The translations under genes and the position numbers were made by a program. DNA of 37,500 nt from Pelagibacteraceae bacterium AG-430-I06 (lineage in GTDB: Bacteria > Pseudomonadota > Alphaproteobacteria > Pelagibacterales > Pelagibacteraceae). Under the pieces are notes generated by a model, which saw only the letters and a program-made list of their open reading frames with translations, was not told the origin of the DNA and made no database searches. The DNA is taken from the NCBI GenBank assembly GCA_003209895.1, contig QCOH01000010.1:1-37500 (forward strand). The letters run 5' to 3'. Positions 14,694-20,430 of the stretch are shown here, one piece after another. The number at the start of each line of letters is the position of its first letter. Position 1 is the first letter of the stretch.

Positions 14694-15065
14694 CTAAATA
14701 CCTTTTTTAATTGCCGAGTAAATTTCTGTTTTCTCAGTTTGGCCAATTATTCTCGCAACTTCTTTTTTACCTTTAAAAACTACGATAGTAGTTCTAACAT
14801 TTACACTTAATGCTTCAGCTATGTCTTTATGCTTGCCTTGTTGGTAAGTCAAAAAAACTACATTTTTGAATTCCTCTTTTGCACCAGTAAGCACTTTGTC
14901 TTGTTTTCTACAGGACCAGCACCACGGTTCATATGAATTTACAACCACTGTTTTACCTGTGGCTTTTGCTTTTTCGAGGCTTTCTAGTGAAAAATTTGTG
15001 TATTTATCAGCCGCATTTGATGGAAACTGAATTAACAAAATCAATATTACTAATATTTTTTTCAT
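14694..15065 (-). CDS. Exported thioredoxin-fold protein
   Basis: A 123-aa protein with a signal peptide (MKKILVILILLIQFPSNA, cleavage near residue 18-19) and a thioredoxin fold. The redox motif is WCWSC (Cys49, Cys52) instead of WCGPC. The segment VNVRTTIVVFKGKKEVARIIG (written here as VNVRTTIVV then FKGKKEVARIIG) corresponds to the strand after the cis-Pro loop of thioredoxins, but the expected Ile-Pro-Thr is Arg-Thr-Thr, so the cis-proline is replaced by threonine. It is likely a periplasmic disulfide oxidoreductase or reductase of altered specificity; the partner is unknown. It is transcribed alone, convergent with infA/tRNA-Phe. Confidence 0.82.
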   Translation of the reverse strand: MKKILVILILLIQFPSNAADKYTNFSLESLEKAKATGKTVVVNSYEPWCWSCRKQDKVLTGAKEEFKNVVFLTYQQGKHKDIAEALSVNVRTTIVVFKGKKEVARIIGQTEKTEIYSAIKKGI

Positions 15066-15124: not shown

Positions 15125-16810
15125 TTGACTAAAATTAAATCAGATATTGAAATTGCAAGAGCATCCAAAATGAAACCAATAAGAGAGGTTCTTGAAAAAT
15201 TTAATATTCCTGATAGCCCTTCTTCTTTCAGTCCAATGGGCCGCCATATTGCAAAACTAAATTTTGAATATATAGATAAATTAAAGGAAAAAAAAAGTAA
15301 TCTTATTTTAGTAACAGCAATAACACCTACACCCGCGGGCGAAGGGAAAACAACAACCTCGGTAGGATTAAATGACGGTTTGAATAAAATTGGAAAAAAA
15401 TCAATTGTTTGTTTAAGAGAACCCAGTTTAGGACCATCTTTTGGAATGAAAGGTGGGGCTGCAGGAGGAGGGTATTCGCAGGTTGTTCCGATGGAACAAA
15501 TTAATTTGCATTTCACTGGAGATTTTCATGCAATAACTTCTGCACATAACTTATTAGCAGCCTTGATAGATAATCATATTTATTGGGGAAACAAACTCAA
15601 TATAGATATAGAAAATATAGTTTGGAAACGTGTAGTTGATTTAAATGATCGTAGTTTGAGAAAAATAAAAATAAATCTTGAAAAATTAAAAACAAACGTT
15701 CCAAGATATGATAGCTTTGATATTACTGTCGCTTCAGAGGTGATGGCTATTTTTTGTTTATCAAATAGCCTTAAAGATTTAGAAGAAAAAATTGGAAATA
15801 TTACAGTAGCATATACTAAAGATAAAAAACCAGTTTATGCGAAAGATTTAAAAGCCAATGGTCCCATGACAGTGTTATTGAAAGAAGCAATCAGACCTAA
15901 TGCAGTTCAAACATTAGAAAATAATCTTGCAATTATTCATGGTGGACCATTTGCAAATATTGCTCACGGATGTAATTCAATTATTGCAACCAAAACTGCT
16001 TTAAAACTATCCGAATATGTAATTACAGAAGCTGGTTTTGGTGCAGATCTTGGTGCTGAAAAATTTTTAGACATTAAATGCCGTAAAGCAGAACTTAAAC
16101 CAAGTTGTGTAGTTCTTGTTACTACAATAAGAGCTTTAAAAATGCACGGAGGTTTAGAAAAAAACGATCTTAAAAAAGAAAATCTTGATGCACTTAAAAA
16201 AGGTTTGCCCAATTTAGAAAGGCACATACACAATATTAAAAAGTTTGGTTTAGAAGTAATAGTTGCAGTTAATCACTTTATTAACGACACAGTAAATGAA
16301 GTTAAAATTATCCAAGAACAATGTGCTAAACTTGGCGTCAAAGTAAGTCTTTGTACGCATTGGTTAGACGGAGGAAACGGAACAAAAGATTTGGCGAAAA
16401 ATGTAGTAGAAATATGCAAGAAGAGCGATACATCTAAATTTAAATATTTATATACTGATCAAACACCAATTTTAGGAAAAGTAGAAAAAATTGCTAAAGA
16501 AATTTATAACGCAAAAGGGATTGAGGTAGATGAAAAAATTAAAGAACAAGTTAAAAAAATAGAGCAGGCGGGGCTTGGAAGATTCCCAGTTTGTATAGCA
16601 AAAACACAATATAGCTTCTCTACTGACCCAAAATTAAAAGGAGCTCCCTCTGGCCATATATTGCCTATAAGAGAAGTAAGATTATCTAGTGGCGCTGAAT
16701 TTGTAGTTGTTGTTTGCGGATCTATAATGACTATGCCAGGACTTCCAAGAGTTCCAGCAGCTGACAATATTAAATTAAATAAAAAAGGTGAAATAGAAGG
16801 ACTATTTTAA
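15125..16810 (+). CDS. fhs: Formate-tetrahydrofolate ligase
   Basis: Interconverts formate + ATP + THF and 10-formyl-THF; in methyl-oxidising SAR11 cells it would mainly run toward formate and ATP. The 561-aa protein shows the P-loop [16 protein letters not shown] (about 68-83), then [24 protein letters not shown] split as [13 protein letters not shown] and [11 protein letters not shown], and late family signatures [13 protein letters not shown] and [20 protein letters not shown]. The start is TTG 15125 ([14 protein letters not shown]), as no ATG is available in a suitable position. The last 42 bases are repeated at 18353. fdh, which uses the formate product, lies 1.6 kb downstream on the other strand. 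Confidence 0.96.
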
Positions 16811-16818
16811 GATTTATT
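16769..16818 (+). repeat. Direct repeat copy 1: 3' end of fhs
   Basis: Covers the last 13 codons and stop of fhs (encoding [13 protein letters not shown]) plus 8 bases after the stop. It is 46/50 identical to 18353-18402. The four differences fall at third codon positions (Gly, Ile, Gly, Leu) and change no amino acid. Similarity stops at 16818, where unrelated sequence leading into the regulator-like gene begins. Confidence 0.9.
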
Positions 16819-16853
16819 ATTTTCAAATATAATCTTCCAATGAAAAGGCTTAA

Positions 16854-17309
16854 TTATTTTACTGATATTTTTAGTTTAGCAATTTTTTCCTCTACTTCAG
16901 ATACAGCTTTAAAAATTTTTTGTTTTTCTTGATCATTAATTACACTTCCTTGTGGGCCTTTAGGATCAATAGCCTCTTGAGTTGTATCCATTAAATATCC
17001 TATACGACCTCCAATGTTAATTAAAGCTGAAGATATATTTTCAAATTCATTGGTTTTTCTTAGCTCGTGTTCAAGTTTAAAATTAAAGCAATCAAGGAGA
17101 GGTGTTCCTAACTTTTTTTGTTGGAGAAGGACATCTAGCTTAATCGCGTCAGAAAAACTGATGTTATGATCTTTGTCATCTTCATCTCCACACTTTCTAA
17201 AGTGAGATATTGATTTTCCAGTAGATTTTTTAATCTCCTCCTCATTAAGTTTTTTAATAGCCTGACTTAAAACAAACTCAACAGATAGGGGTTTTCTTAA
17301 TTTTGTCAT
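16854..17309 (-). CDS. Putative phage-type regulator (CII/HTH-like), 151 aa
   Basis: Not a named gene. The N-terminal 80 residues (PLSVEFVLSQAIKKL, EEIKKSTGKSISHFRKC, then ISFSDAIKLDVLLQQ) follow the pattern of alphaproteobacterial and prophage DNA-binding proteins, in which a helix-turn-helix like VxxxTGxSxxxxRxW/CSDPD is followed by ITLDAAIRLD. The rest is helical, with a coiled-coil-like end (EKQKIFKAVSEVEEKIAKLK). A regulatory role is inferred from this resemblance, from divergent transcription with the gene at 17404, and from an 11-bp-arm palindrome in the shared 94-bp promoter region. It lies in the segment inserted between the two fhs 3' ends. Confidence 0.6.
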   Translation of the reverse strand: MTKLRKPLSVEFVLSQAIKKLNEEEIKKSTGKSISHFRKCGDEDDKDHNISFSDAIKLDVLLQQKKLGTPLLDCFNFKLEHELRKTNEFENISSALINIGGRIGYLMDTTQEAIDPKGPQGSVINDQEKQKIFKAVSEVEEKIAKLKISVK

Positions 17310-17341
17310 AGCAAATCTTAGATTACTCTAACAAACTCTAG

Positions 17342-17367
17342 GTGAAAAATAATCATTTATTTTTCAC
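17342..17367. promoter_or_regulatory. Palindrome in divergent promoter region (candidate operator)
   Basis: Arms GTGAAAAATAA and TTATTTTTCAC are perfect 11-bp inverted repeats around TCAT. It lies between two genes that start outward from it (17309 on minus, 17404 on plus), so it cannot be a terminator for either. A possible -10 (CATAAT, 17376-17381) for the rightward genes would place its -35 position inside the palindrome, fitting a repressor site. Binding by the 151-aa neighbour is inference. Confidence 0.6.
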
Positions 17368-17403
17368 TACAATTCCATAATTTTTTAAGCATGCTGTTCT
17401 TTT

Positions 17404-17637
17404 ATGAAGGCTTTAAAAATTATAATTTATTTATTTATCCTGCTTTTTACAACTCACACATTTGCCAAAAGTAATGCTTACTATCAGACAATACTCACTA
17501 ATGTTTTGACAAATTGTAATACCGCTGGATGCAAAAAACAAATATTTGAACAAGAAGCTCGTATCGCTTTTTTTGCTTTATTAGATACAGCTCTTAATCA
17601 GGCTAGATTTAAATTAAGTCAAAGGGAATTATGGTGA
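17404..17637 (+). CDS. Small exported protein, 77 aa, unknown
   Basis: Begins with a clear signal peptide (MKALKIIIYLFILLFTTHTFA, shown as MKALKIIIYLFILLF then TTHTFA; cleavage about residue 21). The mature part is about 55 residues and has two cysteines close together (NCNTAGC), which could form a disulfide in the periplasm, followed by an amphipathic helix (EARIAFFALLDTALNQARFK). No family recognised. It is the first of three co-oriented small genes; its stop overlaps the next start by 7 bases, indicating an operon. Confidence 0.65.
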   Translation: MKALKIIIYLFILLFTTHTFAKSNAYYQTILTNVLTNCNTAGCKKQIFEQEARIAFFALLDTALNQARFKLSQRELW

Positions 17638-17858
17638 AAATCTTAATGATTTTTTTTCTTTTAACCACACCTGTCTTAGGCAAAGGTAAATGCAAATATT
17701 ATTCTGAAGCAGATGTTGTAAACGGTAACTTAATCAATAAAAAAGAACACTATACGTGTGAAGAAAAAAATCAAAATTTTTTCGTTACATTTTTTACAGA
17801 TCCTAAATGGCAGCAATCAGCAACAATGTTATTTATAGCAATATTAGAAAATATATAG
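17631..17858 (+). CDS. Small exported protein, 75 aa, unknown
   Basis: Starts MVKILMIFFLLTTPVLGKGK, a short signal peptide with likely cleavage after VLG. The mature region has two cysteines (KCKYYSE and HYTCEEK) that could pair, and a hydrophobic end (KWQQSATMLFIAILENI) that might contact the membrane. No family recognised. It overlaps the upstream gene by 7 bases and is followed 14 bases later by the lipoprotein gene; it has no homologous features elsewhere in the window. Confidence 0.6.
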   Translation: MVKILMIFFLLTTPVLGKGKCKYYSEADVVNGNLINKKEHYTCEEKNQNFFVTFFTDPKWQQSATMLFIAILENI

Positions 17859-17872
17859 AAAGGAGGAAACAA

Positions 17873-18310
17873 ATGAGAATAGTCTTAATCATAATTGCAG
17901 CACTATTTTTATCCAATTGTACAAATAGTTATGTGAAAAATAAGAAAATTATTAATTCCCCAAATGATTTACAAAAATTTACAAATATTTGGTGTGAAAA
18001 AAACAAAACTACAGACAAAAAGATATTAATGTGCGGATCAGCATGGAGCAAAGATTTAGGTATTTCCGAATCTAAAGCGGTAATGAGTGCAAAACTTAAA
18101 ATCGCTGATGTTACATCTCATACAATGGTGCGTTCAGAGAAAGTAATGCACAGGGAAAACAAGAAAGGTCTTGTTAAAAGTTATGAGATGAATGCGGACA
18201 ACCAATTAATCGATGTCACAATTGCTGGGTACCGAGTTCTTCATAAAAAAATCTTGAAAGAAAAAAATGGCTGGAGAACTATGGTATTACTAGAATATAA
18301 ACTTACCTAA
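17873..18310 (+). CDS. Putative lipoprotein, LPP20/FlgT-N-like
   Basis: The start at ATG 17873 is chosen because AGGAGG lies 6 bases upstream (17861-17866), a textbook Shine-Dalgarno that is rare among genes in this window, and because it gives a lipoprotein signal peptide (MRIVLIIIAALFLSNC, lipobox LSNC with Cys16). The frame is open 66 bases further upstream but that part overlaps the previous gene. The mature protein (MCGSAWSKDLGISESKAVMS, AKLKIADVT..., ending WRTMVLLEYKLT) has the helix-then-strand layout of LPP20/FlgT N-terminal domains, in which GxA is followed by an Ala-rich helix. The fold call is by pattern only; the function is unknown. Confidence 0.65.
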   Translation: MRIVLIIIAALFLSNCTNSYVKNKKIINSPNDLQKFTNIWCEKNKTTDKKILMCGSAWSKDLGISESKAVMSAKLKIADVTSHTMVRSEKVMHRENKKGLVKSYEMNADNQLIDVTIAGYRVLHKKILKEKNGWRTMVLLEYKLT

Positions 18311-18325
18311 ATCATATAGTCATAT

Positions 18326-18352
18326 GGAGCAGGTAGATTTTTTACTTGCTCC
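18326..18352 (+). terminator. Hairpin at the right edge of the insert, possible terminator
   Basis: GGAGCAGGTA and TACTTGCTCC form a 10-bp stem (one G-U) with a 7-nt loop GATTTTT. It lies 15 bases after the lipoprotein stop, so it could end that transcript, although no T run follows. Its last base is directly adjacent to the second fhs repeat copy (18353), so it also marks the boundary of the inserted segment. Confidence 0.5.
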
Positions 18353-18402
18353 ATTAAATTAAATAAAAAAGGAGAAATCGAAGGTCTTTTTTAAGATTTA
18401 TT
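18353..18402 (+). pseudogene. Orphan 3' end of fhs (direct repeat copy 2)
   Basis: A second copy of the fhs 3' end, encoding [13 protein letters not shown] and a stop, with no fhs sequence before it. Identity to 16769-16818 is 46/50 with only synonymous changes. It runs into the fdh stop codon (minus strand, 18398-18400), so here fhs and fdh would be convergent with 3 bases between stops. This looks like the original fhs-fdh junction, displaced from its gene body by the inserted segment. Confidence 0.85.
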
Positions 18403-19597
18403 TCTTTTTGTATTTAGCCGCTTCCTCAGAACCGCCAGTCGCACTCCCCTTGCTATAAGAGTGGGCACCCATGCCAGCTAATTGACCATCTTTTATAATT
18501 AAATAAGGATCTCTGATTGGCTTTTTATCAAAGAAACATTCTAAAATTTCTCTAACACCTGCTGCATATCTAGCTTGTGCTGATAATGAGGTTCCGGAAG
18601 TATGAGGTGTCATACCGTGGTTTGGCATTGATCTCCAAATATGATCATTTGGAGCAGGTTGCGGAAACCACACATCCCCCGCATATCCACTTAATTGTCC
18701 AGATTTAAGAGCTTTAGCTATCGCCTCTCTATTGCAAATCTTTCCTCTAGCCGTATTAACAATGTAAGCACCTTTCTTCATTTTGCTTATTAATTTATCA
18801 TCAAATAAATTTTCAGTTTCTGGGTGTAGAGGGCAGTTAATTGTAACTACATCACAAACCTTAACTAAAGATTCTACAGAGTCGTGGAATGTTAAATTAA
18901 GTTCTTTTTCAACCGAGTCTGGTAATTTGTGTCTGTCAAAGTAGTGAAGATGAACGTCGAAAGGTTTCATTTTTCTTAATGCATCTAATCCAATACGTCC
19001 TGCCGCAACTGTTCCTACATGCATACCCTCCACATCATAAGATCTATGCACTGCATCAGCAATATTCCAACCACCTTGATTAACTATATTATGTTGATTG
19101 TGATAATCTCTAACTAAAGATAAAATCATCATAACGATGTGTTCGGCTACAGATCTTGAATTACAGTAAGTGACTTCAACTACATCAATTTTATTGTCCA
19201 TTGCTGCTTGTAAATCTACGTGGTCTGACCCAATACCAGCGGTAATAGCCATTTTTAATTTTTTTGCTGACTGGATTCTTTCTTTTGTTAAATAATAAGG
19301 CCAAAAAGGTTGAGATATAACAACGTCTGCATCAACTAATTCCTTGTCTGCTTTACAGCCCTTCGCATCTTTATCAGAGGTCACAACTAATTTATGGCCA
19401 TTAGACTCTAAAAACTTTCTTAAACCTAATTCACCTGAAACACACCCTAGTAATTGACCTGGCTTAAAATCTATTCCTTTTGGGGTTGGCAATGCCATAC
19501 CATCTGGATATTTATCTAATTTTGGTAAACTTGCTACAGGGTAGCTTTTGGGCATCCCCCCTTTAGGATCATCGTATAGAACGCAAAGTACTTTCAT
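18398..19597 (-). CDS. fdh: NAD-dependent formate dehydrogenase
   Basis: Oxidises formate to CO2 with reduction of NAD+; a cytoplasmic, metal-free D-2-hydroxyacid dehydrogenase-family enzyme. At 399 aa it follows the Pseudomonas-type FDH almost residue for residue: Asn146 (TYCNS), nucleotide loop GTVAAGRIG (195-203), Asp221 for NAD preference (YFDRH), Arg284 (NTARGK), Gln313 (FPQPAP) and His332 (TPHTSG), with the typical end GAHSYSKG...GGSEEAAKYKKK. It provides the final, NADH-producing step for formate released by Fhs. It is divergent from the metF-like gene over a 128-bp intergenic region. Confidence 0.97.
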   Translation of the reverse strand: MKVLCVLYDDPKGGMPKSYPVASLPKLDKYPDGMALPTPKGIDFKPGQLLGCVSGELGLRKFLESNGHKLVVTSDKDAKGCKADKELVDADVVISQPFWPYYLTKERIQSAKKLKMAITAGIGSDHVDLQAAMDNKIDVVEVTYCNSRSVAEHIVMMILSLVRDYHNQHNIVNQGGWNIADAVHRSYDVEGMHVGTVAAGRIGLDALRKMKPFDVHLHYFDRHKLPDSVEKELNLTFHDSVESLVKVCDVVTINCPLHPETENLFDDKLISKMKKGAYIVNTARGKICNREAIAKALKSGQLSGYAGDVWFPQPAPNDHIWRSMPNHGMTPHTSGTSLSAQARYAAGVREILECFFDKKPIRDPYLIIKDGQLAGMGAHSYSKGSATGGSEEAAKYKKK

Positions 19598-19671
19598 TTT
19601 TTCCCTGACATATTTGACTATTATAGCGGCACAAAGTCAAACTCTTCTTGTAATGATTTTTCTGGACACGT

Positions 19672-19692
19672 TGAGGGGTCCCCTGGTATATC
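19672..19692 (+). repeat. 21-nt sequence in metF leader, shared with metF coding region
   Basis: TGAGGGGTCCCCTG followed by GTATATC. It matches 20046-20066 at 20 of 21 positions; the preceding CTGGACA (19663-19669 and 20037-20043) also matches. It contains the near-palindrome AGGGGTCCCCT. It lies 33 bases before the preferred metF start. Confidence 0.8.
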
Positions 19693-19725: not shown

Positions 19726-20430
19726 ATGAAGACAAACCTTGCGGTTTTACCAAAGGTAAAAGATGTTTACATAACCATGTTGCCCGGGAACGATTTTAGA
19801 GAGGTAGCCAATAAGGCTAAAGAACTAGTCCAATCCGGGTTTAATCCCGTACCTCACTTTCCTGCAAGATCAATTAAAAATTTTGAGAATTTAAAAGACT
19901 ATGTTTCTATGTGTAAAGATTTTGGCGTAAAACAAGCTCTTGTAATTGGCGGTAGCGCTGAACCCATTGGGGACTATCACTGTTCTCTTCAGATATTAGA
20001 GACAGGATTATTTGATGGTTTCAAGATAGGAATTGCTGGACATCCTGAGGGGTCCCCTGATATATCGGATTCGGAATTAGAAAAAGCTATGAAAGAAAAA
20101 AAACCCTTCGCCGATTATATCGTAACTCAATGGCTTTTAAACCCAGATCCAATTAAAGAATTTATTTCAAAACAAAGTTTGCCAGTACATGTTGGAATCA
20201 CAGGCCCTTTAAAAATTACCAATCTAATAAAATTTGCAAATATTGTAGGAGCAAAAAACTCAATTAATTTTATCAAGAGCAATGCAACAAAAGCACTAGA
20301 TTTATTAAAACCATCTGACCCAAACAATTTAATTGAAAAGGTTAAAAGTTCTACGAATAACTTTCATATTTATACTTTTGGAGGGTTAAAAGAGACAAAC
20401 AAGTGGTTAGAGCAAAATAATTATGCCTAA
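19726..20430 (+). CDS. metF: Methylenetetrahydrofolate reductase-like protein
   Basis: A 234-aa MetF-family TIM-barrel protein. Visible family elements are FNPVPHFPARSI, the segment IGIAGHPEGSPDI (compare GYPEGHP in classical MetF) and VHVGITGPLK. It is shorter than E. coli MetF (about 296 aa). In the context of GcvT-like, fhs and fdh it probably oxidises 5-methyl-THF to methylene-THF rather than feeding methionine synthesis; direction and cofactor are inference. I use ATG 19726 (MKTNLAVLPK); an in-frame ATG at 19702 would add 8 residues. Its stop overlaps the next start by 8 bases. Confidence 0.85.
   Translation: MKTNLAVLPKVKDVYITMLPGNDFREVANKAKELVQSGFNPVPHFPARSIKNFENLKDYVSMCKDFGVKQALVIGGSAEPIGDYHCSLQILETGLFDGFKIGIAGHPEGSPDISDSELEKAMKEKKPFADYIVTQWLLNPDPIKEFISKQSLPVHVGITGPLKITNLIKFANIVGAKNSINFIKSNATKALDLLKPSDPNNLIEKVKSSTNNFHIYTFGGLKETNKWLEQNNYA
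20046..20066 (+). repeat. 21-nt sequence inside metF, shared with its leader
   Basis: Encodes part of the conserved GHPEGSPDI motif. It is identical to 19672-19692 except at one position (A in place of G at 20060). The copy in the leader lies outside the gene, so the shared sequence is not explained by coding constraint alone. Confidence 0.8.

What the first reader, a model, noticed from the sequence alone, without database searches (positions are those of the whole stretch)
16769..18402. Insert flanked by a duplicated fhs 3' end: possible small integrated element
The last 42 coding bases of fhs plus 8 following bases occur again 1,584 bp downstream, directly against the fdh stop. Identity is 46/50 and all four changes are synonymous. 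The repeat is therefore not a decayed copy of the neighbouring one: each copy seems to have diverged while part of a working fhs gene. The simplest reading is that fhs and fdh were once convergent with 3 bases between stops. A foreign segment carrying its own fhs end, from another strain, was then added by integration or recombination at the 3' end of fhs, restoring the gene and leaving the old end as an orphan. Integration into the 3' end of a conserved gene is well known for tRNA genes and some protein genes. No integrase is present, so the element would be a remnant or mobilised in trans.
Basis: partly seen in the sequence, partly recalled or inferred. Interest (0 to 1): 0.8.

Follow-up and report, generated by a model that had tools for sequence, protein, structure and literature searches.

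The report
Four-gene cassette inserted behind fhs
In one marine SAR11-type bacterium a small acquired four-gene cassette sits right behind a housekeeping gene whose last 42 letters occur on both sides of the cassette, the mark of an insertion that kept the gene intact; related genomes still show the empty site.

Summary
In detail: the last 42 bases of fhs plus 8 more recur 1,584 bp downstream (46/50), the window's only direct repeat with E<1e-3. Of 24 other fhs-bearing genus-mates, 14 have fhs directly against fdh, 2-3 bases between stops: an empty site. The insert's lipoprotein gene D is in 1 of 31 genus genomes, the window's own. All four differences are synonymous (simulated chance 0.001), so both copies diverged inside working fhs genes. 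The insert is a four-gene cassette (A-B-C-D) known from other sites in other Pelagibacteraceae. Of 32 other loci with D, 17 carry A and none of those an integrase match; four such units lie between tRNA-Leu repeats. Best reading: an integrase-less, CIME-like unit inserted at the fhs 3' end. The recombinase step is inferred: none of 110 other fhs ends has a second copy, the insert lacks arm-type repeats, and the imported tract may exceed the repeat, so homologous recombination is a serious rival. fhs as target appears new; the kind of event is known.

The parts
15125..16810 (+). fhs, formate--tetrahydrofolate ligase, intact (target gene)
   Evidence: PF01268, E 2.7e-260, profile covered end to end
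16769..16818 (+). Repeat copy 1: working 3' end of fhs, 3 intergenic bases, and 5 bases like the fdh end
16854..17309 (-). Gene A, 151 aa, member of a family with CII/CP76-like members
   Evidence: PF06892 in 10 of 22 homologs (best 3.6e-7), not in A itself at E up to 0.1; homologs
17404..17637 (+). Gene B, 77 aa, probably exported (signal-like start, by eye)
   Evidence: homologs
17631..17858 (+). Gene C, 75 aa, probably exported (by eye), overlaps B
   Evidence: homologs
17873..18310 (+). Gene D, 145 aa, probable lipoprotein with a Cys conserved in all 15 aligned homologs after a signal-like start
   Evidence: weak LPP20 link in 4 of 15 homologs
18325..18353 (+). Hairpin after D (terminator-like) ending on the first base of copy 2
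   Evidence: 13-bp stem, -17.4 kcal/mol
18353..18402 (+). Repeat copy 2: orphan 3' end of fhs lying against fdh
   Evidence: PF02826 E 5.3e-49

Best explanation
A small mobile unit carrying only genes A-B-C-D was inserted at the 3' end of fhs. It brought its own copy of the fhs end (42 codon-preserving bases plus 8), which completes the gene, and the previous end was pushed away to lie against fdh as an orphan. Shown: the duplicated end, the empty site in relatives, coding-constrained divergence of the two copies, the exact extent of the cassette and its presence at other sites elsewhere. Inferred: that a site-specific recombinase supplied in trans joined an element-borne and a chromosomal fhs end, with the crossover most likely in the fully identical 20-base block at the upstream edge of the repeat. 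It works like an integrase-less, att-flanked (CIME-like) unit.
For: Empty site in 14 of 24 other fhs-bearing genus genomes, 2-3 bases between stops. Repeat far above chance and two places only. All four differences synonymous. Similarity to the three closest cassettes runs from the A stop (16854) into D (18285-18300) and no further. Of 32 other loci with D, 17 carry A and 0 of these an integrase match, against 9 of 15 without A (Fisher P 1.8e-4); four A-type units lie between copies of the tRNA-Leu(UAA) 5' part. In the same genus the tRNA-Leu core is doubled in 5 of 31 genomes, in two of them around a 1.8-kb single-gene unit.
Against: No recombinase in the insert; the one tyrosine recombinase found in the genome is of a kind 21 of 31 genus genomes show. 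No second copy at 110 other fhs ends. No viral contig with the end pattern. No direct repeats of 9 bases or more at either end of the insert that could be arm sites. The last 114 bases of fhs are G001-like beyond the repeat (4 differences against about 17% elsewhere), which fits an imported tract longer than an att site. The event is seen in one genome only.
Confidence: 0.57

Rival explanations
1. Homologous or homology-assisted recombination: a donor fragment with its own fhs end and the cassette recombined inside fhs on the left and by a short or illegitimate join on the right; or the insertion first had identical repeats and the working fhs end was later replaced by another strain's allele.
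For: fhs of this genome is mosaic against its relatives, and the last 114 bases are closest to G001 (4 differences, P 2.9e-5 uncorrected). The two copies differ like ordinary genus-mates (4 of 42; mean of 91 pairs 4.2).
Against: G107 gives a stronger mosaic signal (P 2.4e-6), so the G001 tract is not special. This reading still needs an earlier event that set the cassette at an fhs end, and does not by itself explain a repeat running to the end of the gene.
Confidence: 0.3
2. Transposition-like insertion with a 50-base target duplication, followed by mutation of the two copies.
For: Insert flanked by a direct repeat and nothing else.
Against: No transposase among the four genes. Mutation of an orphan copy would not give four synonymous changes only (0.001).
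Confidence: 0.05
3. Assembly or amplification artefact joining two strains' DNA.
For: Seen in one draft genome, 27 contigs, 77.6% complete; the closest cassettes are in another genus of the family.
Against: The longest exact stretch shared by the copies is 20 bases, too short to mislead usual assembly k-mers (inference). The insert is an intact known cassette with clean edges. Listed contamination is 0.01.
Confidence: 0.05

Closest known systems
CIMEs (cis-mobilizable elements), including those at the 3' ends of fda, rpmG and rpsI in Streptococcus salivarius (PMC7563491, passages read)
   Same: Integrated stretch with cargo genes, flanked by recombination-site-like repeats at the 3' end of a protein gene, no recombinase or transfer genes; 1.6 kb is within the 1.2-13 kb given for classical CIMEs.
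   Different: Descent from an ICE or IME and mobilisation are not shown; target is fhs; host is a SAR11-type alphaproteobacterium; A-type relatives lack an integrase as a group rather than one by one.
Genomic islands in tRNA/tmRNA genes (Islander, PMC4383910, abstract and one introduction passage)
   Same: Regenerated target plus displaced fragment mark the two ends.
   Different: Target is a protein gene and no integrase is present.
SAR11 integrase-plus-resolvase elements at tRNA-Leu or tmRNA found here (L077, L078, L082, L083, L086, L087, L255, L256, L262)
   Same: Share C and D in 10 of 10 loci with the serine recombinase and B in 8 of 10.
   Different: They carry recombinases and no A; the window unit has A and no recombinase.
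Tycheposons (PMC10872708, passages; the original description only recalled)
   Same: Small-genome marine bacteria, cargo inserted at a fixed site.
   Different: Bordered by a tRNA and carrying a tyrosine recombinase; neither is so here.

Membership tests
CIME | Flanked by att recombination sites | tested here: inconclusive
   50-base direct repeat of the target end, but recombination at it not shown and no arm-type repeats
CIME | No recombination genes and no conjugation or mobilisation genes | tested here: met
   Four genes, no Pfam match above cut-off
CIME | Derived by deletion from an ICE or IME | not testable with these tools
   No ICE or IME at fhs found to compare with
CIME | Moves by accretion and cis-mobilisation | not testable with these tools
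   Needs experiment
Target-restoring genomic island (Islander type) | Restored target gene and displaced fragment at the two ends | tested here: met
   empty sites
Target-restoring genomic island (Islander type) | Own integrase | tested here: not met
   None among the four genes; only match in the genome lies on another contig
Tycheposon | tRNA border and tyrosine recombinase | tested here: not met
   No tRNA at either edge, no recombinase
Phage satellite or prophage remnant | Integrase and phage-type structural or packaging genes | tested here: not met
   PHROGs: only weak unnamed or CII-like matches, best E 0.00099 for D
Insertion sequence or transposon | Transposase; freshly made identical target duplication | tested here: not met
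   No transposase; the two copies differ at four synonymous sites
Integron gene cassette | attC site | not tested
   No attC model was run

The most novel reading that the evidence does not exclude
Pelagibacteraceae carry a family of small units (gene A with B-C-D, often with more cargo) that as a group lack an integrase and are moved in trans, each restoring the end of its target. The window unit is the minimal form and shows that the family can also use the 3' end of a protein gene, fhs. Gene A, from a family with CII-like regulators and seen here only where no integrase was detected, would take the place of the missing recombinase by controlling a helper's integrase.
Probability: 0.25. Interest if true: 0.65.

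Novelty: new variant of a known kind. Interest (0 to 1): 0.45.

Why it matters
SAR11 cells have streamlined genomes, and how they gain genes is not settled (general knowledge). A four-gene unit set without damage between two convergent metabolic genes, with a codon-preserving duplicated end and 14 empty sites in relatives, is a clean, testable case of gene gain. The wider set of units without an integrase at tRNA-Leu suggests a route that could be common in this group and would need a helper recombinase.

Tried and rejected
Chance repeat: rejected. Widespread repeat: two places only in the genome. Decayed tandem copy: rejected by the synonymous pattern. fhs end as a common integration hotspot: not supported, no second copy at 110 other fhs ends (two more loci, L237 and L238, had no end pattern and were not examined; some contigs gave less than 6 kb). 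Phage with an fhs end as attP: no exact match of the degenerate pattern in viral contigs; one phage record matched the 3' end by DNA, but it holds 99% of fhs, and 33 of the 40 phage records with an fhs match cover at least 80% of it. Similarity of the repeat to the tRNA-Leu gene: not significant, 116 of 2000 shuffles as good for copy 1, 1388 for copy 2. Relatives in viruses: D none and A none in viral contigs with short exact peptide patterns; in phage records D has weak matches in 5 (best E 9e-4, 29% identity; four Methylophilales phages and Pelagibacter phage Mosig) and A none. D on plasmids: none. Defence models: none for A-D. Structures: D (mean pLDDT 61.5) and A (83.0) gave no significant solved match; top non-significant ones are H. 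pylori HP1454 (E 0.11) and the phage 186 regulator (E 0.65). Rfam on the window: only rRNA and tRNA. An earlier count said that A and D were absent from all 31 genus genomes; those held only 8 of the 31, and replace it.

Full report
Observation. The window has fhs at 15125-16810 (+) and a convergent 2-hydroxyacid-dehydrogenase-family gene, fdh, at 18398-19597 (-). The last 42 coding bases of fhs and 8 more (16769-16818) recur at 18353-18402, 46 of 50 identical. It is the only direct repeat with E up to 1e-3 in the window, and a pattern of this end is found at just these two places in the 0.92-Mb genome. For 110 other fhs ends the best second match within up to 6 kb downstream is 31 of 50, equal to the inverted control.

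Empty site. In the genus, 25 of 31 genomes have an fhs match at E up to 1e-50, the window's own included. Of the other 24, 14 have fhs directly against fdh with no insert: 3 bases between the two stops in 11 and 2 in 3. In the remaining 10 no fdh lies in the fetched 1.5 kb on either side of fhs. D is in 1 of 31 genus genomes, the window's own; A is in 4 of 31, the other three only 33-38% identical. The simplest inference is that the junction without insert is the older state and the insert was gained.

Two alleles, not one decayed copy. The four differences are all third-position and synonymous; in 200,000 simulations four random changes were all synonymous in 0.00105. The 8 bases after the stop run into the end of fdh, so both copies look like fhs-fdh junctions. 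The copies differ at 4 of 42 bases, like two genus-mates (mean 4.2 over 91 pairs of the 14). Copy 1 is 1 base from G001 and 2 from G111 and G091; copy 2 is at least 4 from each of the 14. Which is the older resident end cannot be settled with 42 bases.

The insert. Between the copies lie A (151 aa, -) and B, C, D (77, 75, 145 aa, +). A's family has CII/CP76-like members (PF06892 in 10 of 22 homologs, best 3.6e-7), though A itself matches no Pfam family at E up to 0.1; a phage 186 regulator is its top, non-significant, fold match. D looks like a lipoprotein; LPP20 is matched weakly by 4 of 15 homologs, not by D itself. B and C look exported (by eye). None of the four matches a defence model. 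Against the three closest cassettes, in assemblies AG-414-L04, AG-439-C02 and AG-447-L10, DNA similarity of 71-73% begins at the A stop (16854) and ends in D (18285-18300). A hairpin after D ends on the first base of copy 2.

A family of cassettes. In 397 genomes of the order D matches in 20 and A in 43, own genome included. A is in 17, none with a tyrosine-integrase match; a serine recombinase is in 10, of which 9 have the integrase (the tenth is on a 5.4-kb contig); 5 have neither. A against integrase: 0 of 17 and 9 of 15, Fisher P 1.8e-4. Both recombinase profiles were built from six of these loci, which therefore match by construction; of four integrases tested in Pfam one is above the family cut-off (L082), two have weaker matches (L077, L086) and one none (L087); the two resolvases tested are clear. 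Many flanks are cut by contig ends. Four A-type units (L081, L264, L266, L270) lie between copies of the tRNA-Leu(UAA) 5' part; of their 17 other genes 12 were checked in Pfam and none is a recombinase. In the window's own genus the tRNA-Leu core is present twice in 5 of 31 genomes. In G081 and G086 the stretch between is 1.8 kb with a single trypsin-like protease gene and in G113 about 1 kb with one gene; in G056 and G077 it holds several ordinary-looking genes and may not be one unit.

Mechanism. The anatomy is that of a target-restoring insertion: a 20-base identical block at the upstream edge, then a restored end that keeps every codon. I favour integration by a recombinase supplied in trans (0.57). 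Against it: the one tyrosine recombinase found in this 77.6%-complete genome is of a kind that 21 of 31 genus genomes show, nearest XerD but far below that family's cut-off (78 against 330 bits); there are no short direct repeats at the insert's ends, while tRNA-Leu units show AGTC-type repeats beside their cores (by eye); there is no second case at fhs. Also the last 114 bases of fhs differ from G001 at 4 sites, against about 17% elsewhere. That would fit an imported tract longer than the repeat, hence homologous recombination (0.30). The signal is weak: G107 gives a stronger one, and no window of fhs looks foreign to the genus.

Known and new. By behaviour it is closest to CIMEs, decayed integrated elements that keep att sites but no recombination or transfer genes; the paper I saw in passages reports composite islands with CIMEs at the 3' ends of rpmG, rpsI and fda in streptococci (PMC7563491). 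Membership is open because descent from an ICE or IME could not be tested. It is not a tycheposon: no tRNA border, no recombinase (PMC10872708, passages). A search for 'formate-tetrahydrofolate ligase' with 'attachment site', 'integrase' and 'integration site' listed ten of 415 papers, none of which holds the first term. None of the papers listed seems, from title and start of abstract, to describe such units in SAR11; most subscription journals are not in that library.

Noticed in passing
L264 4746, 9536, 11235, 13019; L081 118, 2935, 8010; L253 2210, 4864, 5682: Arrays of tRNA-Leu(UAA) 5'-part copies with 1-5 kb stretches between them.
   Followed up: partly
L077, L078, L082, L083, L086, L087, L255, L256, L262: Elements with tyrosine integrase, serine recombinase and the C-D (mostly B-C-D) operon, near tRNA-Leu or tmRNA in most.
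   Followed up: partly
L086 7722-7768, 8703-8749, 10357-10403: Three near-identical 47-base direct repeats, two of them flanking the C-D genes.
   Followed up: no
window 19659-19692 and 20033-20066: A 34-base piece of a coding region (85% identical) recurs upstream of that gene; both places are also found in 6 of 10 fdh loci examined.
   Followed up: partly
window 14694-15065: A thioredoxin-like gene (label by motif, recalled) lies upstream of fhs here and in G111 and G024, not in the fetched stretches of the other genus-mates.
   Followed up: no
G000:C9:44666-45172 (L148): Single tyrosine recombinase of the genome, XerD-like but far below the cut-off; 21 of 31 genus genomes have a PF00589 match.
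   Followed up: partly
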